Below are positions 1-21,391 of a DNA stretch of 44,302 bases, one piece after another (within the stretch, counting starts at the first letter, position 1; the number at the start of each line of letters is the position of its first letter). A model generated the notes under the pieces. That model did no database searches and was not told the origin of the DNA. It was given only the letters and a program-made list of their open reading frames with translations. Source of the DNA: Flavobacteriales bacterium (lineage in GTDB: Bacteria > Bacteroidota > Bacteroidia > Flavobacteriales_D > CAJJDF01); assembly GCA_020630395.1 (NCBI GenBank), contig JAHDBM010000008.1, forward strand, positions 34,999 through 79,300, in the 5' to 3' direction. The position numbers were made by a program, and so were the translations under genes.

Positions 1-357
1 GCACATGATTTTGTATACGAAATGGATTTGGCTTATGCTACTTCCGATTTAGTAGTGTCAAGAGCCGGAGCATTGTCTATATCAGAATTATGTTTGGTGA
101 GTAAACCATCAATCTTGGTTCCTTCGCCAAATGTTAGTGAAGATCATCAAACGAAGAATGCAATGGCATTAGTTAATCAAAATGCAGCTGTATTAGTAAA
201 GGATATAGAAGCAGTTGAAGTTTTAGGTAAAGAAGTGGTGACATTGTTTAATGAACCAGATAAATTAATAAAGTTAGGAGCGAACATTGCAAGTTTTGGG
301 AGACCAAATGCAGCAGATGCAATAGCAAATGAGGTGTTTAAAATAATACAGAAATGA
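1..357 (+). CDS. murG: MurG, C-terminal part (UDP-GlcNAc transferase), 5' end outside window
   Basis: This is the last 118 codons of MurG, which transfers N-acetylglucosamine from UDP-GlcNAc to lipid I on the inner face of the cytoplasmic membrane, giving lipid II. The reading frame is open from base 1, so the gene starts upstream; full MurG is about 360 residues. The visible part carries the C-terminal nucleotide-sugar binding signature of the family: ATSDLVVSRAGALSISEL followed by PSPNVSEDHQTKNA. It is followed directly by a small gene whose ATG overlaps the TGA stop by 4 bases, and then by murC, so the genes look translationally coupled. The assignment is firm from motif and from the mur-fts context. 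Confidence 0.95.
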   Translation, partial: AHDFVYEMDLAYATSDLVVSRAGALSISELCLVSKPSILVPSPNVSEDHQTKNAMALVNQNAAVLVKDIEAVEVLGKEVVTLFNEPDKLIKLGANIASFGRPNAADAIANEVFKIIQK

Positions 358-659
358 GAAGTTTAGGTTTAATATTATTAGGTGTTTTGTTTTTTAATTC
401 ATGTGAATTTAAAGATGAAAGCGGAATATTAGAGCGTCTTAAAATGGTAAGTGAAGATGGACACGAGAGGATTTTAATATTAAATAAGGATAATAGTTTT
501 GTAGAGACTTCAGGGTATGGTGGAAAATTTGCTGCTTATGGTAAATGGTCGGGTACATATGCACATAAATATGATTTGTTTTTGCAATATGAAGGAAATG
601 ATAATGAAATAACATATACGATTTTAGAGGATAGTGTGTTTTTAAACAATATAGAATAA
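354..659 (+). CDS. small putative lipoprotein between murG and murC
   Basis: This encodes a 101-residue protein that I do not recognise. The N-terminus is a short hydrophobic signal (LGLILLGVLFF) ending in NSC, a plausible relaxed Bacteroidota lipobox with the lipidated cysteine near residue 17. The remainder is short, polar and strand-rich (GKWSGTYAHKYDLFLQYEG, then ITYTILEDSVFL), reminiscent of small lipocalin or META-like folds, though that is only an impression. The start ATG overlaps the murG stop as ATGA, and its TAA stop overlaps the murC start as TAATG, so it is embedded in the operon and very likely translated with it. In most related clusters murG and murC are adjacent, so this is an inserted gene. 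A link to peptidoglycan synthesis or division is suggested only by position. Confidence 0.7.
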   Translation: MRSLGLILLGVLFFNSCEFKDESGILERLKMVSEDGHERILILNKDNSFVETSGYGGKFAAYGKWSGTYAHKYDLFLQYEGNDNEITYTILEDSVFLNNIE

Positions 660-2041
660 TGAACATTAATTTGAATAAAATATATCATGTTTACCTTGTC
701 GGAATTGGCGGGATAGGGATGAGTGCGCTTGCGCGATATTTTCATTCTCAAAGAATAACTGTAGCAGGTTATGATGCAACCTCTTCTCCATTAACAAAGG
801 AATTAGAAGAGCTTGGCATACACATTCATTATAAAGAAGCACTAGAACATATACCTCCAAAAATCACACAAGAGAAAAAAATGTCTTTAGTGATTTATAC
901 CCCTGCTATACCGTCAACTAATCGAGAGCTTAATTGGCTAAGAAGTGAGGGATGTACCGTATTAAAAAGATCAGAGGTGTTAGGGTTAATATCTAAACAA
1001 TATAAAACGATTGCAGTATCTGGAACTCATGGTAAAACAACTACCTCATCTATGATTGCTCATGTTATGAATCAATCATCTGTTAAGTGTCATGCATTTT
1101 TAGGAGGTATAGCAACTAACTTTAATAGCAACCTATTATTAAATGAAGGAGCTGAATATGCTGTTGTAGAAGCAGATGAATTTGATCGTTCATTTTTAAC
1201 ATTAGAGCCAACAATTGCTGTTACTACATCTGTAGAAGCCGATCATCTTGATATTTATGGGGAAGAAGAATATTTGGTAGCTTCTTTTCAAGAGTTTATA
1301 GATAAAACAGTAGATGGAGGAATACTTTTTCATCAAGAGAAAGTTGATTTGAAGAGCAACAATAAAAGGTCTTACGGATTAGAATCAGGAGATTATTATG
1401 GTGATAACCGAAAGGTAGTGAACGGAGATTTTATTTTTGATGCGCATACACCTAATGGAATAATAACAGAAATTAAACTTGGAATAAATGGCTTGCATAA
1501 CATAGAAAATGCGATTGCAACTATTGCTGTTTGTCAAGAAGTGGGGATTTCTAATGAAGTAATAAAAGAAGGTTTAGGCTCGTATTTGGGTGTTAAGAGA
1601 AGATTCGAATACCAATTAAAAACGAATGATGTAGTATTTATTGATGACTATGCACATCATCCTAGCGAGATAAAAGCATTGGTGTCGAGTGTTAGGGAGC
1701 TTTATCCTAATAAACGAATAGTTGGAGTATTTCAACCGCACTTGTATAGTAGAACGAAAGATTTTGCTGATGAGTTTGCACATGAGTTAGATCAATTAGA
1801 TCAAACCATACTGTTAGAGATTTATCCAGCAAGAGAATTACCAATAGAAGGAGTTGATTCAGCAATGTTATTAAGTAAAATGAAAAATCCTGGCATAATA
1901 GTACCAAAGGATGATATAGTAGAGCAAGTTATTAGAAATAAACCGCAGGTGTTGTTAACCATAGGAGCGGGAGATATAGATAGATTAGTTGAGCCTATTA
2001 GGTTAGGATTAGTGGAGAATCAAATAGCAATTGCTAACTAA
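659..2041 (+). CDS. murC: UDP-N-acetylmuramate--L-alanine ligase
   Basis: MurC adds L-alanine to UDP-N-acetylmuramic acid using ATP, the first amino-acid addition in peptidoglycan precursor synthesis, in the cytoplasm. The 460-residue length is normal. The N-terminal Rossmann-type domain has VGIGGIGMSALAR (residues 14-26), the ATP-binding loop is GTHGKTTTS (122-130), EADEFDRSF follows in the central domain, and the C-terminal domain has the family motif DDYAHHPSEI. The start ATG overlaps the upstream stop by one base, and ftsQ begins at the next base after the TAA stop, so this is one tight transcription and translation unit. Confidence 0.98.
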   Translation: MNINLNKIYHVYLVGIGGIGMSALARYFHSQRITVAGYDATSSPLTKELEELGIHIHYKEALEHIPPKITQEKKMSLVIYTPAIPSTNRELNWLRSEGCTVLKRSEVLGLISKQYKTIAVSGTHGKTTTSSMIAHVMNQSSVKCHAFLGGIATNFNSNLLLNEGAEYAVVEADEFDRSFLTLEPTIAVTTSVEADHLDIYGEEEYLVASFQEFIDKTVDGGILFHQEKVDLKSNNKRSYGLESGDYYGDNRKVVNGDFIFDAHTPNGIITEIKLGINGLHNIENAIATIAVCQEVGISNEVIKEGLGSYLGVKRRFEYQLKTNDVVFIDDYAHHPSEIKALVSSVRELYPNKRIVGVFQPHLYSRTKDFADEFAHELDQLDQTILLEIYPARELPIEGVDSAMLLSKMKNPGIIVPKDDIVEQVIRNKPQVLLTIGAGDIDRLVEPIRLGLVENQIAIAN

Positions 2042-8487: not shown

Positions 8488-8520
8488 AAAGCCATAATAG
8501 AATGCTGTTATGGCTTTTTT
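8488..8520 (+). terminator. Rho-independent terminator after yqeY
   Basis: A perfect 10-base-pair stem (AAAGCCATAA with TTATGGCTTT) encloses a 10-base loop, and the stem runs into a T tract. It sits just after yqeY and separates it from the G8-domain gene downstream. Confidence 0.88.
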
Positions 8521-8562
8521 AGTAAATATGGTTTATATTTAATTTTTATTAAAGTCATTATA

Positions 8563-11500
8563 ATGATTCGATATTTAACGGTTGTAATCTTCCTTTTTTC
8601 CATAACATTAATACGGGGTCAACATATTGGGACGTTAATTCCAAACGGTTCATATACTCACATAGCTGTTCAAGATGGCGATTGGTTTGATACGCTTACT
8701 TGGGCTTCCAATAAGGTTCCATCAAATGCTGCTATAGTTCATATTCCTATGGGTAAAAGGGTTACTTATGAAGGAAATAATAGTGATCATATTTTTGCGA
8801 TAAAGGTAGATGGTGATTTAACAGTTAAACAATCAAATTCGGGGCAAAAAACAACTTTAATATTCGATACATTTATTGGTACAATGATGTCCCATGTTAA
8901 GTTTCTTGCTGATTCATTACAACATGGTGCAATTGATGTTATTATAAAACCATTTGATATTGAAAAACATAAAGCAGGATTAAGTGGGTATTCCCAAATA
9001 TGGAATTCTACAGCTTTAAGCCACTTTTCTGATGGTTTACCAGTTGATTCGGTTGTAAAAATTGTGGGGCCAGATAAGCGATTTAATACCCTTGCAGATG
9101 CCTTAGCTGGAAATACTGTTGTTACAGAAGTTCATAGATCACCAAAAGATGATGGGGCAGGAGTGCTAGGTAGATATGGATGGGATTCAACCCAATTATC
9201 TTTAGGTATTGTTACCATGGGGCAGCTGGAAATTATAGGTAAAGAAAAGGTAAACATGCTTAAATTAGCACAAGATGCTGCCAAGGGACAAAAGAAAATT
9301 GTACTGGATAGTGTGCCTTCTTCATGGGAAATAGGAGATAAAGTTTTAGTAACTAGAGGAGGAGATTGGAGAACTACAAATAAAGGAAATGATACTGCAA
9401 CCATAAACAATATAATTGGAGACACCATTTTTTGTAAGAAAAACTTAAAAAAGAATCACCTAGGTAGACCTCAAGATAGCTTGCATTGCTACATAGGAAA
9501 CTTAACAAGAAACATTGTTTTTAAATCTACTGTAAAGGATACCATTCATCAAAGAGGTCACTTGATGGCTATGCATAATGATAGTAATGTTCAGATAAGG
9601 AATGCTGCATTTATTGACATGGGAAGAACAGATAAGTCAGTAATTTTAGATGATTTAATTTGGGATGGTTGGGTGCAACCCCCTACTTTTTACTCAAAAA
9701 TTTCTGCTTTAGGACAAGAATGTACAGAACATGTTAGGAATCCTGCAAAAGATATTACTAATAGTAGAGGTAGGTATTCAATACACTTACATAAACTCAA
9801 AGCAAAAGTAACTTCTAATTTAGCTCAAGTAACAGGAAATGTAGTTTGGGGAAATCCAGGTTGGGGAATAACCCATCACGATTCCTATGCAAATGTTTCG
9901 AATAACATAGTTTACCAAGTAACTGGGTCAGGAATTGTATCAGAGTCAGGAAGTGAGTTAGGATTTTGGGATAATAATTTAGTGGTTGATATTGATAAAG
10001 GTCATAAGGAAGATGTTTATACTTCTGCTTTATTTCATGACGATTATTTGTTTTCGGGACAAGGAATGGGAATGAAGGGTAGGGGAGTTGTTTGCAGAGG
10101 GAATGTTATTGCAGATGTTATTCAGGGATTTGGAGTAATGAATATGAACCCAACAAAAACACATGATCGAGTTGATCCAACTGCCTTAGCTACATTACGG
10201 CCAGGTTTTTTAGTCGATCAATTTCCGTTAAGTAAAAATGGTTATAGTATAGAAGGAGATGGTGTAATGCCTGTAGAAGTAGCCTTAATCTTAGAGAACA
10301 ATACAGTGATTTGGTCAAATATAGCGTTAAAATCTATTGAAAGAGATATGGGAGTTAATCATGAATCTCGATCTATTTTTGATGGTTTTTCCGCTTGGGG
10401 CACAAATGAGGGTTTAGTTATTACGTATCAAGCAGATTATTCATTTAAGGATGTTTTTATTTCAGGAAAAGACACGGCATCTTCTAAAGGAATTTACCTA
10501 TGGAAACACTCTCATAACCATATTTTTGACGGTATAAAATTAGTAGATCTTGCGTATGGAATGACACCTTCAAAATTAGTAGAGAGTAATACCTCTTCAT
10601 TACTCAAAACCCGAAATAATGGATTCACTCCATGGTATTTTATTGATTTGGTTCAAGAAAACGTAGATAAGTTTTATAATATTGAAAAGGAAGATACATC
10701 TACAGCTACTTCTTATACTGAACATACTGATAATCCAATTCATATAAGTTCTAGTGAAGTTGTTGCTAGACCAATTACGTTTACCATAAAAGATTCAAGT
10801 CTGTTAGAAGTAGATTACTCTACGAATGATTTTAGATTTGAAATTGATGGTTTTATTGGTGATGATTTAGGTGCTTATGAACTAGGTATTCAACAAGCAC
10901 TGGCGCAAGGGAATTTAAGAGAGGGTTATCCAACTCGTATATATGAATTTGCATCTGATACTGCTTTCGAAAGCTATTTAATAGCAAATGGAGTTTATAA
11001 AGACACAGCCGATAATGATCAGTTATATTTTATTTTAGAGGAAGTTTTACCAAATAGAGTAAGTTATCAATTTAAAACATTCCCAATAAGGGTGAAAATT
11101 AACAATGCGCCTAATAAGCCATTGTTTAATAATGCCCAAATAGAACCAATTGAGAATTTTGCACCAACCAATCAATTAGTGAGTTACTCAGCATCCGTTA
11201 GTCAAAGCTCTACTGATACAACCATTATAGTTGATGGAATTAAGATTGATGCAGGAGCATGGAAAGCTAATGATGGTAATACGAACGGTAGAATTAACTG
11301 TCAATTATACCAAAGAGGTTTAGTGCCATTAGGTAGTTTTAGTTCTACAGAAAGAGAATATCAACCATGGTATGATTTAGATTTAGGCGAATTAAAAACA
11401 ATTGAATTTATTGATGTTTGGAATACAGTAGAACTAAATGGTGCAGATATTGAAATCAATTCTTCTCATTTTGATGATTTTTATGTTTTAGTTTCAGACA

Positions 11501-12327
11501 CTGCATTTGATACTCTGTCTTTAGCACAAGCAATTAACTTAGCAGACTATCAATATTTGTATAATGGTTCGGCTAAGCGAAAATTATCGCTTAATAATTT
11601 GGGAGTTAAAGGAAGGTATGTTCGTATTCAGGCAATGGATACTACAATTATGAAGTTAGCTGAAGTTGAGATAGTCGGAAGGAAATTTATAGATTCATGT
11701 GTTGAGACACATAGTATAGATATTCTATTAGTTTGCGATTCTATTACATGGCGGAATGGGATTACATACTATGCGGATAATAATTCTGCAACAGATACTA
11801 TATTAAATGCTGGAGGATGTGATAGTATAATTCATCTTGATTTAACAGTAATTACTAATGATACAAATATTACGGTTAATGGTTTACAATTAACTGCTAA
11901 TCAAGGAGGGGTTGGATATCAATGGTTAGATTGTGGTAACAGTTTTGTTCCTATTTTTGGGGAGAATAATCAGTTATTAACAGTCTCAAGTAATGGTATT
12001 TATGCTGTTGAGCTAAACAATAATGGTTGTATTGATACTACTGAATGTATTCAAATAAATTCAATAGGTATTAATAGTTTAAATAATGGATCAATACAAA
12101 TTTACCCTAATCCAAATACTGGAAATTTTAAGTTAATATATTCAAACATTTCTGATCCAGGTACTGTAAAAATTATAACGAAGCAAGGTAAGCTATTAGC
12201 TGAGTATAATAAAGACTATAAAAGTAGTCGTAATATTGATGTTAAACTCGAAAGCGGAATTTATTATGTGATGTTTGAAAGTAATAAAGGGCTTGTGTAT
12301 CAAAGAAAACTAGTGATTCTAAATTAA
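8563..12327 (+). CDS. T9SS-secreted G8-domain / parallel beta-helix protein, CEMIP/TMEM2-like
   Basis: This is a 1254-residue secreted protein with a signal peptide (residues 1-20). A G8 domain spans about 37-165: DGDWFDTLTW, then KVPSNAAIVHIPMGKRVTYE and a GDL strand. The central part (about 220-780) looks like a right-handed parallel beta-helix and includes a block at about 404-475 (YSIHLHKLK, GWGITHHDSYANVSNNIVYQ, SESGSELGFWDNN) that matches the layout of the animal CEMIP/TMEM2 and fibrocystin families. A discoidin-like (F5/8 type C) domain lies at about 862-1040, a CDSITW / GGCDSIIHLDLTV module at 1058-1096, and a type A T9SS sorting domain (IYPNPNTGNFKL) from 1180 to the end. By family it may bind or cleave a large polysaccharide such as a hyaluronan-like polymer; that is inference. 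The stop overlaps the next convergent gene by 4 bases. Confidence 0.85.
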   Translation: MIRYLTVVIFLFSITLIRGQHIGTLIPNGSYTHIAVQDGDWFDTLTWASNKVPSNAAIVHIPMGKRVTYEGNNSDHIFAIKVDGDLTVKQSNSGQKTTLIFDTFIGTMMSHVKFLADSLQHGAIDVIIKPFDIEKHKAGLSGYSQIWNSTALSHFSDGLPVDSVVKIVGPDKRFNTLADALAGNTVVTEVHRSPKDDGAGVLGRYGWDSTQLSLGIVTMGQLEIIGKEKVNMLKLAQDAAKGQKKIVLDSVPSSWEIGDKVLVTRGGDWRTTNKGNDTATINNIIGDTIFCKKNLKKNHLGRPQDSLHCYIGNLTRNIVFKSTVKDTIHQRGHLMAMHNDSNVQIRNAAFIDMGRTDKSVILDDLIWDGWVQPPTFYSKISALGQECTEHVRNPAKDITNSRGRYSIHLHKLKAKVTSNLAQVTGNVVWGNPGWGITHHDSYANVSNNIVYQVTGSGIVSESGSELGFWDNNLVVDIDKGHKEDVYTSALFHDDYLFSGQGMGMKGRGVVCRGNVIADVIQGFGVMNMNPTKTHDRVDPTALATLRPGFLVDQFPLSKNGYSIEGDGVMPVEVALILENNTVIWSNIALKSIERDMGVNHESRSIFDGFSAWGTNEGLVITYQADYSFKDVFISGKDTASSKGIYLWKHSHNHIFDGIKLVDLAYGMTPSKLVESNTSSLLKTRNNGFTPWYFIDLVQENVDKFYNIEKEDTSTATSYTEHTDNPIHISSSEVVARPITFTIKDSSLLEVDYSTNDFRFEIDGFIGDDLGAYELGIQQALAQGNLREGYPTRIYEFASDTAFESYLIANGVYKDTADNDQLYFILEEVLPNRVSYQFKTFPIRVKINNAPNKPLFNNAQIEPIENFAPTNQLVSYSASVSQSSTDTTIIVDGIKIDAGAWKANDGNTNGRINCQLYQRGLVPLGSFSSTEREYQPWYDLDLGELKTIEFIDVWNTVELNGADIEINSSHFDDFYVLVSDTAFDTLSLAQAINLADYQYLYNGSAKRKLSLNNLGVKGRYVRIQAMDTTIMKLAEVEIVGRKFIDSCVETHSIDILLVCDSITWRNGITYYADNNSATDTILNAGGCDSIIHLDLTVITNDTNITVNGLQLTANQGGVGYQWLDCGNSFVPIFGENNQLLTVSSNGIYAVELNNNGCIDTTECIQINSIGINSLNNGSIQIYPNPNTGNFKLIYSNISDPGTVKIITKQGKLLAEYNKDYKSSRNIDVKLESGIYYVMFESNKGLVYQRKLVILN

Positions 12328-12875
12328 TAGATTTTAATATACTCAATTTCATAATTAAAAGGACTTTCTTTCTTTTCATTTGATATAAACCCTATTCTAA
12401 TTGCGTTAGAAAGTTCTTCTTTGGTTATTTTTTTGTAAGTTGGTTTTCCTATTATATATTCTTTAAAATTTTCGAGATTAATCCTTACTGTTTCCCAGGT
12501 ATTAGTTGAAGTAAGTTTTATATCGTGTTTAAAATAAGGTTTGTAAAATTGTTTATGAAGTTCAATCGTAAAGGCCATATTAATTCCGCTACCTTTCATT
12601 TTAATTTCAACTATATTTTTATCACTTAAATCAATCTCTTGAAAAGGACTTTTAAGAGATGAAAAACCTCCATTATTTGCTAATGAAATATTCCCTCGAT
12701 ATAGTATAATGTTTTCTTTTGTTGATATTTCACCAGTAGAAAAACCTCCCATTACTCCATCATTAATAACTCTCCAATTATTAATTATATCTGTTTGTGT
12801 AAACACTTTTTTGTTTTGTTTTTGAATACTACAACTAATAAAGAAAGTAAAAAGTATAAATGAAATTGTTTTCAT
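12324..12875 (-). CDS. CIA30-like lipoprotein
   Basis: This 183-residue protein has a lipoprotein signal (ILFTFFISC, cysteine at about residue 15). The mature part matches the CIA30 (complex I intermediate-associated protein 30, NDUFAF1) family: WRVINDGVMGGFSTGEI, then GNISLANNGGFSSLKSPF, and a C-terminal beta-sandwich strand ending FNYEIEYIKIY. CIA30 domains have a carbohydrate-binding-like sandwich fold. In mitochondria the family assists complex I assembly; bacterial members are uncharacterised. An exported lipoprotein form argues for an envelope role rather than complex I assembly. It lies downstream of the DUF4397 gene on the same strand, behind that gene's terminator. Confidence 0.85.
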   Translation of the reverse strand: MKTISFILFTFFISCSIQKQNKKVFTQTDIINNWRVINDGVMGGFSTGEISTKENIILYRGNISLANNGGFSSLKSPFQEIDLSDKNIVEIKMKGSGINMAFTIELHKQFYKPYFKHDIKLTSTNTWETVRINLENFKEYIIGKPTYKKITKEELSNAIRIGFISNEKKESPFNYEIEYIKIY

Positions 12876-12944: not shown

Positions 12945-15362
12945 TTACATTTTTATAAATGTAGCAACTCCAACCATTTTGCTGTTGTCTAATATTGATA
13001 TTCTGTACGTACCTTTAGCCAACTGAGCAATATTTATTTGACTATTGTTAACCGTATAAAAAGATCCATCTATGATTTTACCATCTGCACTAAAAATAGC
13101 AACAGTTTTATTGTTTAGATCATAACCATCAACTGATATAATATCGTTAGCTGGGTTAGGGAACATAGTAACTTTTTCAATCGTGTTTTCAACTAAAGAA
13201 GTAGTAGGTCCAGTTGTATCTGGTAATTCAATTAGATTACCACCGTTTGGCAATGCAACCCATAATCCAAATGCAGGACCATTACTATTTACAGAAGGAT
13301 CTAAGAATCCAGAGGCAACTACAACTAAAGCAGAATCAGTTAAATTTAAAGCAGCTAAAGGTGCGTAATATGAGGCTACATTAGTAGTTCCTGGAGAATC
13401 TTTAATATCTAAAATATAATTAGCAGTAGCAAGTGATAGATAACCTGCAAAATCGCCATAAGCGGCATCATCTACTAAGTTACCAGCACTTCTTTCATCA
13501 ACATCTACAATAGGCGCATCAGTAGAACCATGGTGTACTAAAACATCAGTGTTACCAGAAGTAGCAGCCATTTCTCTACCAGAACCATAAACGTTTAATG
13601 TAAACGGTTGAGCAGGAGCATATCCAGTAGGGCTAACAATACCATCTGCAACTAAGATATAAGTAGAATCTTGAGCTAAGTTGTAGTTGAAAACTGCACC
13701 AGGGATAGTATCATTAACAGAAGTACTGTTTTTGCCAGCAACACCAATTTGGATGTTTGTTAATGCAGGAGCATCAATAAATGGGGTTGCAGTTCTAAAT
13801 GCGAAGTTATCTAATAATAGGCTTCCGTTAAGGTATACATCAACAGAATCAGCAGCTAAATCAGCTGAATTGTGTATAACTTGAACTCTAGCAGTAGGAC
13901 CTGCAACTGATGGTAATGGAATTAAATTTCCACCTTCAGGTAGAGCAACAAATAAACCAAACGCTTCTCCATTAGAGTTTACAGAAGGATCTAAAAATCC
14001 AGATGCAATAACAGTAATAGCAGAATCAGTAAGGCCTAAAGTTGATAAAGGTGCTCCGTAAGATGCAACAACAACAGATCCTGTTTGATCTTTAACGTCT
14101 AAAGTGTAATCAGCAGTTGGTAATGATAAATATCCAGCAAAATCTCCATAAGAAGCATCATCAACTAAATTACCAGCAGTTCTTTCATCAACATCAACAG
14201 TAGGTGCATCAGTAGAACCATGGTGTACTAAAACATCTGTATTACCAATTGTACTCGAAACTTCTCTACCAGAACCATAAACGTTTAATGTAAAGGGTTG
14301 TGCTGGAGCATATCCAGTTGGGCTAACAATACCATCAGCAACAAGAATGTAAGTAGAATCTTGAGCTAAGTTGTAGTTGAAAACTGCACCAGGGATAGTA
14401 TCATTAACAGAAGTACTGTTTTTGCCAGCAACACCAATTTGGATGTTTGTTAATGCAGGAGCATCAATAAATGGGGTTGCAGTTCTAAATGCGAAGTTAT
14501 CTAATAATAGGCTTCCGTTAAGGTATACATCAACAGAATCAGCAGCTAAATCAGCAGAGTTATGAATAACTTGAATTCTAGCAGTAGGTCCTGTAACAAC
14601 AGGAAGAGGAACTAGCTCACCTCCTTCTGGTAGCGCTACCCATAAACCGAATGAAGGCCCGTTATTATTAGCCGAAGGATCTAAAAATCCTGAAGCAACA
14701 ACTGTTAAAGCTGAATCAGCAAGCCCTAAAGTTGCTAGAGGTGCTCCATATGAAGCAACAACTACAGAACCCGTTTGATCTTTAACATCCAAAGTATAAT
14801 CTGCAGTAGGTAATGATAAATATCCAGCAAAATCTCCATAGGCAGCATCATCAACTAAATTACCAGCTGTTCTTTCATCAACATCAACAATTGGTGCATC
14901 AGTAGATCCATGGTGTACTAATACATCTGTTTCACCTGTGTTATTAGCTACTTCTCTACCCATGTTGTATATATTTAATGCAAACGGTTGTGCAGGAGTA
15001 TAACCTGAACTAACAGTTCCATTTGCAACAATAATGTATGTAGCTCCATTAGTTAGCGTAACTGTTGTTGATAATCCAGCAATAGTATCAGTGATAGCTG
15101 TGCTGTTTTTTGGAGCGAAGCTTAGTGTAATAGGAACTCCAGGCGTTACATTAATAAATGGTGTTGCGTTTCTAAAGGCAAAATCATCAATAAGTAAAGA
15201 TGATGATGCTCCGGATGTTGCCCACACATCTACTGTATCAGTAGCCACATCAGGAGAATTGTGAATAGCTTGTACTCTTGCTTGGCCAAAACCATTAAAA
15301 GAAATACTGCTTGTTACTAAAGCACCTACTAGTAGGCTCTTCTTCGTAAGATTTAGTTTCAT
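12945..15362 (-). CDS. T9SS cargo with three DUF4397-type tandem repeats
   Basis: This is an 805-residue secreted protein with a signal peptide ending around FNGFGQA (residue 28). Three units of about 230 residues follow. Each has a first half of the DUF4397 type (RxQVIHNSADLAADSVDVY, then DNFAFRTATPFID) and a second half beginning TDVLVHHGSTDAP with VDVDERTAGNLVDD and YGDFAGYLSLPTADY. The last 75 or so residues are a type A T9SS sorting domain (VTMFPNPANDIISVDGYDL, ending GVATFIKM). It should be carried across the outer membrane by T9SS and attached to the surface or released. The family function is unknown. Units 2 and 3 share a 206-base stretch that is identical at the DNA level. Its promoter region faces the sigma-factor gene. 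Confidence 0.88.
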   Translation of the reverse strand: MKLNLTKKSLLVGALVTSSISFNGFGQARVQAIHNSPDVATDTVDVWATSGASSSLLIDDFAFRNATPFINVTPGVPITLSFAPKNSTAITDTIAGLSTTVTLTNGATYIIVANGTVSSGYTPAQPFALNIYNMGREVANNTGETDVLVHHGSTDAPIVDVDERTAGNLVDDAAYGDFAGYLSLPTADYTLDVKDQTGSVVVASYGAPLATLGLADSALTVVASGFLDPSANNNGPSFGLWVALPEGGELVPLPVVTGPTARIQVIHNSADLAADSVDVYLNGSLLLDNFAFRTATPFIDAPALTNIQIGVAGKNSTSVNDTIPGAVFNYNLAQDSTYILVADGIVSPTGYAPAQPFTLNVYGSGREVSSTIGNTDVLVHHGSTDAPTVDVDERTAGNLVDDASYGDFAGYLSLPTADYTLDVKDQTGSVVVASYGAPLSTLGLTDSAITVIASGFLDPSVNSNGEAFGLFVALPEGGNLIPLPSVAGPTARVQVIHNSADLAADSVDVYLNGSLLLDNFAFRTATPFIDAPALTNIQIGVAGKNSTSVNDTIPGAVFNYNLAQDSTYILVADGIVSPTGYAPAQPFTLNVYGSGREMAATSGNTDVLVHHGSTDAPIVDVDERSAGNLVDDAAYGDFAGYLSLATANYILDIKDSPGTTNVASYYAPLAALNLTDSALVVVASGFLDPSVNSNGPAFGLWVALPNGGNLIELPDTTGPTTSLVENTIEKVTMFPNPANDIISVDGYDLNNKTVAIFSADGKIIDGSFYTVNNSQINIAQLAKGTYRISILDNSKMVGVATFIKM
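13660..13865 (-). repeat. 206-bp perfect direct repeat, copy 1 (unit 3)
   Basis: These 206 bases are identical to 14350-14555 (offset 690 bases, i.e. 230 codons), while bases on either side differ. They encode the DNFAFRTATPFID block of unit 3 of the DUF4397 protein. Confidence 0.95.
14350..14555 (-). repeat. 206-bp perfect direct repeat, copy 2 (unit 2)
   Basis: This is the second copy of the identical stretch found at 13660-13865. It points to recent gene conversion or unequal recombination between repeat units. Confidence 0.95.
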
Positions 15363-19381: not shown

Positions 19382-21391
19382 CTACTTGTTTTTTGGCTTA
19401 TAATCTGATCTTAAAACCTTAAAAGTAGTACGTCTGTTTAATGTATGTAATCTTTCGTATTCAGAAGGGTTAGTAGTTTTCATAGGTGTAATGTAATCAC
19501 ACGTTAATACTTGCCCGTTTGGTAATACTCTAGGTGTTGTTTCACCATATCCTTTACCAACTAATCGTTCTCTATCAATACCCTTGCTTACTAAAAATCT
19601 AACACATTCGTTTGCTCTACCTGCTGAAAGTTTCATGTTACTTTCGTCACTACCTCTACAATCGGTATGAGCATCTAGTTCTACTACGATAGTAGGGTTC
19701 TCAACCATAATATTATAAAGGAACATCATAGAGTCATTAGATGAAATTGTAGGATCATTAATAAATGCTGAATCATTTAAGATATAACGAACCTCTGGCA
19801 TTGGTATTTCTCCACAATCAGTTCTTTGTACTTTAAAGTCATGGAAAAAGTTTTTAGCACCTTGAATTCCAAACGTAGATCGCTTATCTTTTCCTATTAA
19901 AGCGTTAACTCCTTCAACTACAATAGTGTAGTTGACATCTTTCTTGATATAACGGCCAGCACCTTTTTTATCAAATGTAAACATACCTTTGTCATCTGTT
20001 TTAACAGTAACTGAAGATCCATCACTACCAGTTAGGGTAACCTTAGCCCCAACAGCTGGTTCACCAGCATCTTTTTTAATGTCACAAGCAGCTAGTACTT
20101 TAACTGTAAGTTTTAATTCATCTTCTGGTAATTCAAAAGAGTATAAGTCATCCTTTCCTTTTCCACCCTCTCTGTTAGATGTAAAGAATCCTTTATCTGT
20201 TTTGCTTTTTTCAAAAACAAATGCGTAGTCATCTTTGTGAGAATTTATTGGAGACCCCATGTTTTTCGGTTTTCCCCATTTGTTTTCCCCAATAGATTTA
20301 GCCTCAAAAATATCTAAGGCTCCCATTCCTACGTGTCCATCAGATGAGAAATATAATTTACCATCAGTAGATAAATATGGAAACATTTCATTTCCTGGGG
20401 TATTGATTTGTAATCCTAAATTTTTAGGTTTACTCCATTCTTTAGCTCTTTTATCATAAGTAGACATCCATAAATCTTTTCCTCCTTCACCTCCTGGCAT
20501 ATCTGATGAAAATATTAAAACCTTTTCATTTCTGCTTAGCGCAGGGTGTCCTACAGAATATATTACACTATCTTTTAATGGTATTAGAGTAGCTGGTTTC
20601 CAATTTTGTCCTTGCTGTTGAGCAACATAAATATCACACCCAAGATTTAGTTTCTTTTCCATTGGGCATCTTGTGAAATAAATAGTGTTGCCTTTGCTAT
20701 TCATTACAGCAGCACCTTCGTGATTTACTGTATTAATTCCCTCTGGTAAAGGAGAAGGTTCTCCCCATTTTCCGTTTTTATCTCTTCTAGACACAAATAA
20801 ATCAGTGAAGTTTTCGCCAATGATAGCATCAGTTCCAGCTCCCATTGCACCTTGTCTAGAAGAACTAAAAATATATTGCTCACCTTTTTTGTCAAATTGA
20901 GCTAAAGCCCAATCATAACTTTCTGTATTAAGAGCGCTTTGATTTTTTACTTTGTATCGAGTTGGTTCAGCAAGCATTGCTTTAACGTCTTTTGTAGATT
21001 GCAATCCCTTTTTTCCAAGTTTGTTAGTAGGATCAATTTTCAATAATTCTTCAAAAGAATCTGCTGCGCCTTTATAATCTCCAAGTTTTAGTTTTGTTTG
21101 TGCAAACCCTAATAATACATCAGGTTCTGTTTTATGATATTTTAAGTTATACGCTCTTTCATAAAACTTTCTAGCTTCTTCATAATTCGCCATGTTATCA
21201 TAACATTTAGCTAATTTATAAGTTACTTCTCCTTTTTTTGCAGCACCTTTGGCTTTGGTATATTCTTTTTTGAAAACATCAATTGCTTCAAAGTATTTCC
21301 CCCCTTTTAATAAATTATCTCCTTTGCTATTTTGCCCTAGAATTAGGGTGCTTGACAATAGAATAGTGATTAGAATAATTATATTTCTCAT
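19382..21391 (-). CDS. OmpA-family protein with TPR, PD40 and regulatory domains, PorE-like
   Basis: This is a 669-residue envelope protein with a signal peptide (1-20). TPR helices lie at about 22-130 (GDNLLKGGKYFEAIDVFKK, LAKCYDNMANYEEARKFYERA), and PD40/WD40-like propeller blades at about 165-415 (repeats such as YIFSSSR, IYFTRC, LIFSSDMPGG, LYFSSDG). A carboxypeptidase-regulatory-like domain spans 425-520. The OmpA peptidoglycan-binding domain is at about 535-660 (VVELDAHTDCRGSDESNM, SAGRANECVRFL). This domain order is that of PorE, a T9SS component that binds peptidoglycan, but paralogues with the same layout are common, so the exact role is open. Unlike lipoprotein versions it shows no lipobox. 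It lies downstream of a TonB-dependent receptor. Confidence 0.8.
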   Translation of the reverse strand: MRNIIILITILLSSTLILGQNSKGDNLLKGGKYFEAIDVFKKEYTKAKGAAKKGEVTYKLAKCYDNMANYEEARKFYERAYNLKYHKTEPDVLLGFAQTKLKLGDYKGAADSFEELLKIDPTNKLGKKGLQSTKDVKAMLAEPTRYKVKNQSALNTESYDWALAQFDKKGEQYIFSSSRQGAMGAGTDAIIGENFTDLFVSRRDKNGKWGEPSPLPEGINTVNHEGAAVMNSKGNTIYFTRCPMEKKLNLGCDIYVAQQQGQNWKPATLIPLKDSVIYSVGHPALSRNEKVLIFSSDMPGGEGGKDLWMSTYDKRAKEWSKPKNLGLQINTPGNEMFPYLSTDGKLYFSSDGHVGMGALDIFEAKSIGENKWGKPKNMGSPINSHKDDYAFVFEKSKTDKGFFTSNREGGKGKDDLYSFELPEDELKLTVKVLAACDIKKDAGEPAVGAKVTLTGSDGSSVTVKTDDKGMFTFDKKGAGRYIKKDVNYTIVVEGVNALIGKDKRSTFGIQGAKNFFHDFKVQRTDCGEIPMPEVRYILNDSAFINDPTISSNDSMMFLYNIMVENPTIVVELDAHTDCRGSDESNMKLSAGRANECVRFLVSKGIDRERLVGKGYGETTPRVLPNGQVLTCDYITPMKTTNPSEYERLHTLNRRTTFKVLRSDYKPKNK

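What the first reader, a model, noticed from the sequence alone, without database searches (positions are those of the whole stretch)
8563..12327. Bacterial CEMIP/TMEM2-like G8 protein exported by T9SS
It combines an N-terminal G8 domain, a beta-helix with the HLH and THHDSY...NIVY...ESGSELGFWDNN block seen in the animal CEMIP/TMEM2 hyaluronan-degrading family, a discoidin-like domain and a T9SS sorting signal. This looks like a secreted polysaccharide-binding or depolymerising enzyme outside known CAZy-style loci, with no SusC/SusD partners nearby.
Basis: partly seen in the sequence, partly recalled or inferred. Interest (0 to 1): 0.65.

Follow-up and report, generated by a model that had tools for sequence, protein, structure and literature searches.

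The report
Secreted bacterial cousin of TMEM2/CEMIP
This bacterial gene encodes a secreted beta-helix protein that is a remote but genuine relative of the animal hyaluronan-handling proteins TMEM2 and CEMIP, and comparing bacterial, phage and human versions exposes eight unchanging residues that are a testable candidate for the active site that the animal proteins have so far lacked.

Summary
ORF 8563..12327 (1254 aa) has a signal peptide, a G8 region, a CEMIP-type beta-helix, a discoidin-like domain and a T9SS sorting tail. The window's own Pfam G8 and CEMIP hits fall below curated cut-offs, but profiles of its family hit only human TMEM2 in the PDB (E down to 2e-17). A predicted model superposes best on TMEM2 (Z 26.1, 485 residues).

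It is a superfamily cousin, not the nearest bacterial relative. A Croceibacterium plasmid protein (859 aa) matches TMEM2 at E 1e-93, while the window core alone does not match it. The GG lectin domain that animal studies call essential is absent.

Eight residues (H333, R404, Y405, H408, H410, H439, E461, E465) are identical in 32 of 32 bacterial and phage homologues and in human TMEM2. Relatives sit in exopolysaccharide clusters of Rhodobacterales plasmids and near phage tail or packaging genes. I infer a secreted polysaccharide depolymerase acting on a bacterial or algal matrix polymer; activity is unproven. Hyaluronan is unlikely: no SusD-like, GH88 or sulfatase match was found in this genome. 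Bacterial G8 proteins are known by annotation; the new part is the shared residue set, which makes the missing TMEM2/CEMIP active site testable.

The parts
8563..12327 (+). 1254-aa G8/CEMIP-type beta-helix protein with discoidin domain and T9SS tail
8563..8622 (+). N-terminal Sec-type signal peptide (MIRYLTVVIFLFSITLIRGQ)
   Evidence: sequence shows a hydrophobic stretch after a basic N-terminus; no dedicated predictor was run
8698..8859 (+). G8 domain match (aa 46-99), first coils of the beta-helix
   Evidence: Pfam PF10162, 18.8 bits, below cut-off; 17 of 17 family members match
8929..9177 (+). insertion of about 80 aa (aa 123-205) present only in the window's own clade
   Evidence: alignment of window clade with other bacterial G8 proteins; low pLDDT
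8668..10878 (+). beta-helix plus following sandwich (aa 36-772) that superposes on the TMEM2 ectodomain
   Evidence: VIA-align Z 26.1, rmsd 2.7 A, 485 residues, 8c6i_A 118..1140; Foldseek E 1.2e-10
9769..10002 (+). CEMIP_beta-hel match (aa 403-480)
   Evidence: Pfam PF24606, 24.3 bits, just below cut-off
9559..9561 (+). H333, invariant (RGHLMAMH motif)
   Evidence: 32 of 32 homologues; identical in TMEM2
9772..9792 (+). R404, Y405, H408, H410 (RYSIHLH), invariant, candidate active site
   Evidence: 32 of 32 homologues; identical in TMEM2
9877..9879 (+). H439, invariant (GWGITHHDS), one coil further
   Evidence: 32 of 32; identical in TMEM2
9943..9957 (+). E461 and E465 (ESGSE), invariant
   Evidence: 32 of 32; identical in TMEM2
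11263..11628 (+). discoidin / F5_F8 type C galactose-binding-like domain (aa 901-1022)
   Evidence: Pfam PF22633, 34 bits, above cut-off; region conserved in L001, L002, L025, L026 (47-58% identity)
12100..12318 (+). T9SS type A sorting domain (aa 1180-1252)
   Evidence: PF18962 and TIGR04183 above cut-off
8488..8521 (+). terminator-like hairpin (AAAGCCATAA...TTATGGCTTTTTT) between yqeY and this gene, suggesting a separate transcription unit
   Evidence: read directly from sequence; the 10-base loop is beyond the limit of the scan

Best explanation
The gene encodes an exported, probably surface-anchored beta-helix enzyme of the G8/CEMIP superfamily that cuts a matrix polysaccharide. Steps: Sec export, then T9SS translocation and surface attachment through the C-terminal sorting domain (signals shown; transport inferred). 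The discoidin module holds the protein to a glycan (inferred). The polymer lies in the beta-helix groove, where R404, Y405, H408, H410, H439, E461 and E465 (with H333 nearby) form the catalytic and perhaps metal-binding site for endo-cleavage by hydrolysis or beta-elimination (conservation shown, catalysis inferred). The substrate is most likely an acidic exopolysaccharide of bacteria or algae, with a role in matrix remodelling or local depolymerisation rather than growth on hyaluronan (inferred).
For: Fold: TMEM2 is the top structural match, Z 26.1 over 485 residues, above all other beta-helices. Sequence: profiles of mixed bacterial, phage-only and combined homologues each have TMEM2 as their only significant PDB match (E 6.8e-13, 3e-12, 2.3e-17). 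Conserved site: 8 residues identical in 32 of 32 rows including phage and CEMIP-type bacterial members and in TMEM2. R404/H408/H410 alternate with buried-type hydrophobic positions 405/407/409, so they should point outward. They lie on or at the ends of predicted strands 405-410, 434-439 and 456-460. Context: 7 of 8 plasmid records with a relative place it among glycosyltransferases, mostly with GH16, sulfotransferase, Wzz or tyrosine autokinase genes. Phage homologues lie near baseplate, terminase, tape-measure and head-tail adaptor genes. A close relative (L002) sits beside a sulfatase and a sialate-type carbohydrate esterase. T9SS: sorting tail and SprA.
Against: No activity is known for any bacterial member found. 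TMEM2's own activity is disputed and its active site unassigned (PMC10206443; PMC10276149; PMC10474455). The inactivating animal mutations listed in those papers lie in the GG domain, which this protein lacks. The invariant residues could be structural. The model has mean pLDDT 60.8 and no coordinates were available to measure distances. The window's own neighbourhood has no carbohydrate genes, and no SusD-like_3, GH88 or sulfatase match was found in the genome. The exopolysaccharide contexts are all Rhodobacterales plasmids and belong to a different branch.
Confidence: 0.52

Rival explanations
1. Non-catalytic surface adhesin or lectin: the beta-helix is a rigid stalk, the discoidin domain binds glycans, and the invariant residues stabilise the helix or bind a structural metal.
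For: TMEM2 ectodomain showed no hyaluronidase activity and no assignable active site (PMC10206443). Beta-helix adhesins are also structural matches (PfbA, Vag8). No carbohydrate-processing partners lie near the window gene.
Against: Strict conservation of polar His/Arg/Tyr/Glu across bacteria, phages and human with otherwise about 20-30% identity is more typical of an active site. The phage and exopolysaccharide contexts fit cleavage.
Confidence: 0.25
2. Polysaccharide-modifying enzyme such as a C5-epimerase, acting on a nascent or secreted polymer without cutting it.
For: Alginate epimerases AlgE4, AlgE6 and AlgG rank just under TMEM2 in structural matching (Z 21-22), and Rhodobacterales relatives sit in biosynthetic clusters.
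Against: That rank is shared with lyases, hydrolases and non-enzymes of the same fold. Phage tail context and animal kin point to depolymerisation.
Confidence: 0.12
3. True hyaluronan or glycosaminoglycan hydrolase/lyase used for nutrition, equivalent to animal CEMIP.
For: Shared fold and residues with TMEM2.
Against: No GH88, sulfatase or SusD-like_3 match in the genome; GG domain absent; much closer bacterial TMEM2 relatives exist elsewhere.
Confidence: 0.06

Closest known systems
TMEM2/CEMIP2 ectodomain (PDB 8c6i) and CEMIP/KIAA1199/HYBID
   Same: G8 coils continuous with a right-handed beta-helix; eight invariant residues identical (TMEM2 H519, R546, Y547, H550, H552, H585, E608, E612, numbering derived)
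   Different: No GG/lectin-like domain in the bacterial protein; C-terminal discoidin plus T9SS tail instead; single-sequence search of the window core does not find TMEM2
CEMIP-type bacterial G8 proteins (L078 Croceibacterium atlanticum plasmid; L069, L070, L072 in genomes of the window's phylum)
   Same: G8 plus CEMIP beta-helix, same eight residues
   Different: A separate 100/100 clade, far closer to TMEM2 (E 1e-93 for L078, 6e-39 for L072); RYPVHWH/VHGTN/EDGIE-type motifs instead of GRYSIHLH/GWGITHH/ESGSE
Rhodobacterales exopolysaccharide-cluster G8 proteins (L034-L039, L077)
   Same: Core and motif set 26-29% identical to window
   Different: Encoded on plasmids inside exopolysaccharide biosynthesis clusters; other C-terminal parts, e.g. 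a type I secretion target domain is annotated in one
Phage beta-helix tailspike depolymerases (e.g. LKA1 gp49 4ru4, Klebsiella depolymerases 7vul, 7w1c)
   Same: Same general fold; [quoted passage not shown]
   Different: No sequence match in the PDB profile searches and no G8 known; fold resemblance alone

Membership tests
G8 domain proteins (PF10162) | match to the G8 profile | tested here: inconclusive
   18.8 bits for the window, below cut-off 22.9; all 17 aligned relatives match, best E 1.6e-17
CEMIP_beta-hel (PF24606) | match to the CEMIP beta-helix profile | tested here: inconclusive
   24.3 bits for the window, cut-off 27.3; all 17 relatives match, best E 1e-11
G8/CEMIP/TMEM2 superfamily | G8 coils continuous with a TMEM2-like right-handed beta-helix | tested here: met
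   TMEM2 is top match, Z 26.1, 485 residues; profile hits TMEM2 at E 2.3e-17
CEMIP/TMEM2 hyaluronan depolymerases proper | GG (lectin-like) domain inserted after the first coils | tested here: not met
   TMEM2 chain ~167-335 has no counterpart in the bacterial profiles; no GG/ILEI match in Pfam
CEMIP/TMEM2 hyaluronan depolymerases proper | hyaluronan degradation | not testable with these tools
   needs an enzyme assay
CEMIP/TMEM2 hyaluronan depolymerases proper | groups with CEMIP-type sequences | tested here: not met
   window clade (6 rows, 100/100) is separate from the CEMIP-type clade (4 rows, 100/100) in the tree; window core alone has no TMEM2 hit; TMEM2 itself was not placed in the tree
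T9SS type A cargo | C-terminal Por_Secre_tail and a T9SS in the genome | tested here: met
   aa 1180-1252 above cut-off; SprA in G000
SusC/SusD polysaccharide utilisation locus | SusC/SusD pair beside the gene | tested here: not met
   none among neighbours scanned; no SusD-like_3 match in the genome

The most novel reading that the evidence does not exclude
The eight residues shared by bacterial, phage and human proteins are the long-missing catalytic site of the whole G8/CEMIP superfamily, a polysaccharide-cleaving enzyme family used by bacteria for matrix remodelling, by phages for capsule or matrix penetration and by animals for hyaluronan; the GG domain is an animal-side substrate-binding addition.
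Probability: 0.4. Interest if true: 0.8.

Novelty: new member of a known kind. Interest (0 to 1): 0.5.

Why it matters
Whether TMEM2 and CEMIP are enzymes, and where their active site lies, is openly disputed: one group reports no activity and no assignable site (PMC10206443), one reports human TMEM2 inactive (PMC10276149), one reports intrinsic activity (PMC10474455). The mutations those papers list as inactivating lie in the GG domain, which this bacterial protein lacks. The residue set H519/R546/Y547/H550/H552/H585/E608/E612 of TMEM2, found here by bacterial and phage comparison, can be mutated directly, and small GG-free bacterial proteins such as L078 offer simpler proteins to assay.

Tried and rejected
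Single-sequence PDB search of the window protein gave only the T9SS tail and chance hits. Full-length homologue search was swamped by the shared T9SS C-terminal region, so the core was used. Phage GenBank records gave no match; phage relatives came only from IMG/VR, and PHROGs has no family for those tested. A close-clade profile scan of viral contigs found none. Distant-DNA search of plasmids found nothing. Conserved gene neighbourhood was rejected: the VWA, CIA30 and DUF4397 neighbours are not shared by any relative's fetched locus. The genus mate G001 and family member G002, inspected after yqeY, lack the gene there, and no family-f1 genome besides the window's own gave a core match. The first invariance table was partly circular because rows were picked by motif; the claim rests (rows chosen by tblastn) and on the four CEMIP-type rows, which do not all satisfy that filter and were chosen by Pfam or tblastn hits. 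In G000 the Pfam G8 model alone gave no hit.

Full report
What is there. Window ORF 8563..12327 (+) encodes 1254 aa. It begins with a typical signal peptide and carries, in order: a G8 region, a long beta-helix with the GRYSIHLH / GWGITHHDS / ESGSE motifs, a discoidin (F5/8 type C) domain and a T9SS sorting domain. The last two are above curated cut-offs. G8 and CEMIP_beta-hel are sub-threshold for this protein alone, but every one of 17 aligned relatives matches both. The gene stands alone: a terminator-like hairpin separates it from yqeY upstream, and the downstream gene, a CIA30-domain protein, runs convergently and overlaps by four bases.

Homology. The core alone finds no TMEM2 in the PDB. 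Profiles do: the 17-row bacterial profile hits only TMEM2 8c6i (E 6.8e-13), a phage-only profile hits it at 3e-12 and a mixed profile at 2.3e-17, with all other hits at chance level. AlphaFold2 on 13 sequences gave mean pLDDT 60.8 with well-predicted helix coils. Foldseek and VIA-align both rank TMEM2 first (E 1.2e-10; Z 26.1, rmsd 2.7 A, 485 residues), above NosD, alginate epimerases, phage tailspikes and polygalacturonases. A phage homologue modelled separately gave TMEM2 first as well (Z 25.4, 493 residues), though that alignment included the window and its kin as rows.

Not the closest CEMIP cousin. Other bacterial G8 proteins are far nearer to TMEM2: an 859-aa Croceibacterium atlanticum plasmid protein matches at E 9.6e-94 over most of its length and L072 at 6.1e-39. 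In the tree the window sits in a separate clade of six Bacteroidota proteins (100/100), apart from the CEMIP-type clade (100/100). Bacterial proteins lack the GG lectin-like insertion of TMEM2 (chain positions about 167-335 have no counterpart). The window clade has its own insertion of about 80 aa (aa 123-205), and the discoidin region is kept in the four relatives whose sequence reaches that far.

Eight invariant residues. Across 32 sequences spanning the window clade, short Bacteroidota G8 proteins, alphaproteobacterial proteins, phage proteins and CEMIP-type proteins, H333, R404, Y405, H408, H410, H439, E461 and E465 never vary. Human TMEM2 has all eight. TMEM2 numbers are chain index + 82: the chain is 1301 residues for construct 106-1383 with an N-terminal tag, and the cysteine at index 472 then becomes Cys554, listed as unpaired in PMC10206443. 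Caveats: part of the set was first chosen by motif, but the tblastn-chosen alignment A4 shows the same residues (two scan patterns used bias W434/H439 and the TRN motif there), and the CEMIP-type rows, chosen by Pfam or tblastn, keep all eight. Positions 405, 407 and 409 are hydrophobic in 93-100% of rows while 404, 408 and 410 are invariant polar, so R404, H408 and H410 should face outward. H410 and H439 end predicted strands 405-410 and 434-439, and E461 follows strand 456-460, at about one-coil spacing. This fits one patch on successive coils, but no coordinates were available to measure it.

Contexts. Eight plasmid records carry a relative. In seven, all Rhodobacterales, the gene lies among glycosyltransferases, and in most also with GH16, sulfotransferase, Wzz/tyrosine autokinase or O-antigen ligase genes; the eighth, Croceibacterium, does not. 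Viral-contig relatives lie near baseplate, terminase large subunit, tape-measure/Neck1 and head-tail adaptor genes and fall in at least two places in the tree. The close relative L002 is followed by a SASA carbohydrate esterase and a sulfatase. Phage use, exopolysaccharide clusters and animal hyaluronan handling together suggest polysaccharide cleavage; this is guilt by association.

The window's genome. It has SprA, but no match to SusD-like_3, GH88 or sulfatase models and no second member of the A1 family. The gene is patchy: the window type occurs in 3 of 299 order genomes searched (the window, L025, L026), and it is absent after yqeY in G001 and G002, consistent with gain or loss. Growth on hyaluronan is therefore unlikely; matrix remodelling or attack on a neighbour's or alga's polymer fits better (inference).

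Known versus new. Bacterial G8 domain-containing proteins are already annotated in public records, and Pfam has a CEMIP beta-helix family, so this is a new member of a known kind. I found no paper in the searched library on bacterial G8 function. The useful advance is the residue set shared with human TMEM2, because the active site of TMEM2/CEMIP is unassigned and disputed (PMC10206443, PMC10276149, PMC10474455).

Noticed in passing
L078:6887-9466 (Croceibacterium atlanticum plasmid NZ_CP011453.2): An 859-aa bacterial G8 protein matches human TMEM2 at E 9.6e-94 without the GG domain; a much closer relative of the animal proteins than the window gene, and possibly a simpler protein to study. 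A second annotated G8 protein gene lies about 5 kb away.
   Followed up: partly
L040, L041, L042, L044, L045, L046, L047, L049: G8/CEMIP-type proteins on IMG/VR viral contigs, several beside tail, packaging or connector genes; PHROGs v4 has no matching family for those tested, and GenBank phages gave no hit.
   Followed up: partly
L069:8735-11770, L070:7940-10969: CEMIP-type proteins of about 1010 aa in genomes of the window's phylum, directly after a sugar isomerase-like (AP_endonuc_2) gene and oxidoreductase-like genes; the L069 protein carries a T9SS tail.
   Followed up: no
L037:3218-9909 (Leisingera sp. NJS201 plasmid): Two tandem G8 loci, each annotated as a short G8 protein overlapping a second ORF, which looks like duplicated and frameshifted copies.
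   Followed up: no
window 12324-12875 (-): CIA30-domain protein (PF08547, 95 bits) with a lipoprotein-like N-terminus, convergent with and overlapping the G8 gene by 4 bases; weak match to a xyloglucan-binding SGBP domain.
   Followed up: partly
window 12945-15362 (-): T9SS-exported protein with repeated DUF4397 domains, internal repeats 66-84% identical.
   Followed up: no
window 19382-21391 (-): TPR + PD40 + OmpA protein, the architecture of the T9SS component PorE (resemblance from memory; domains).
   Followed up: no
G000:C83:3-4631 and C84:65683-72804: Two SprA-family genes in the genome, one truncated at a contig end.
   Followed up: no
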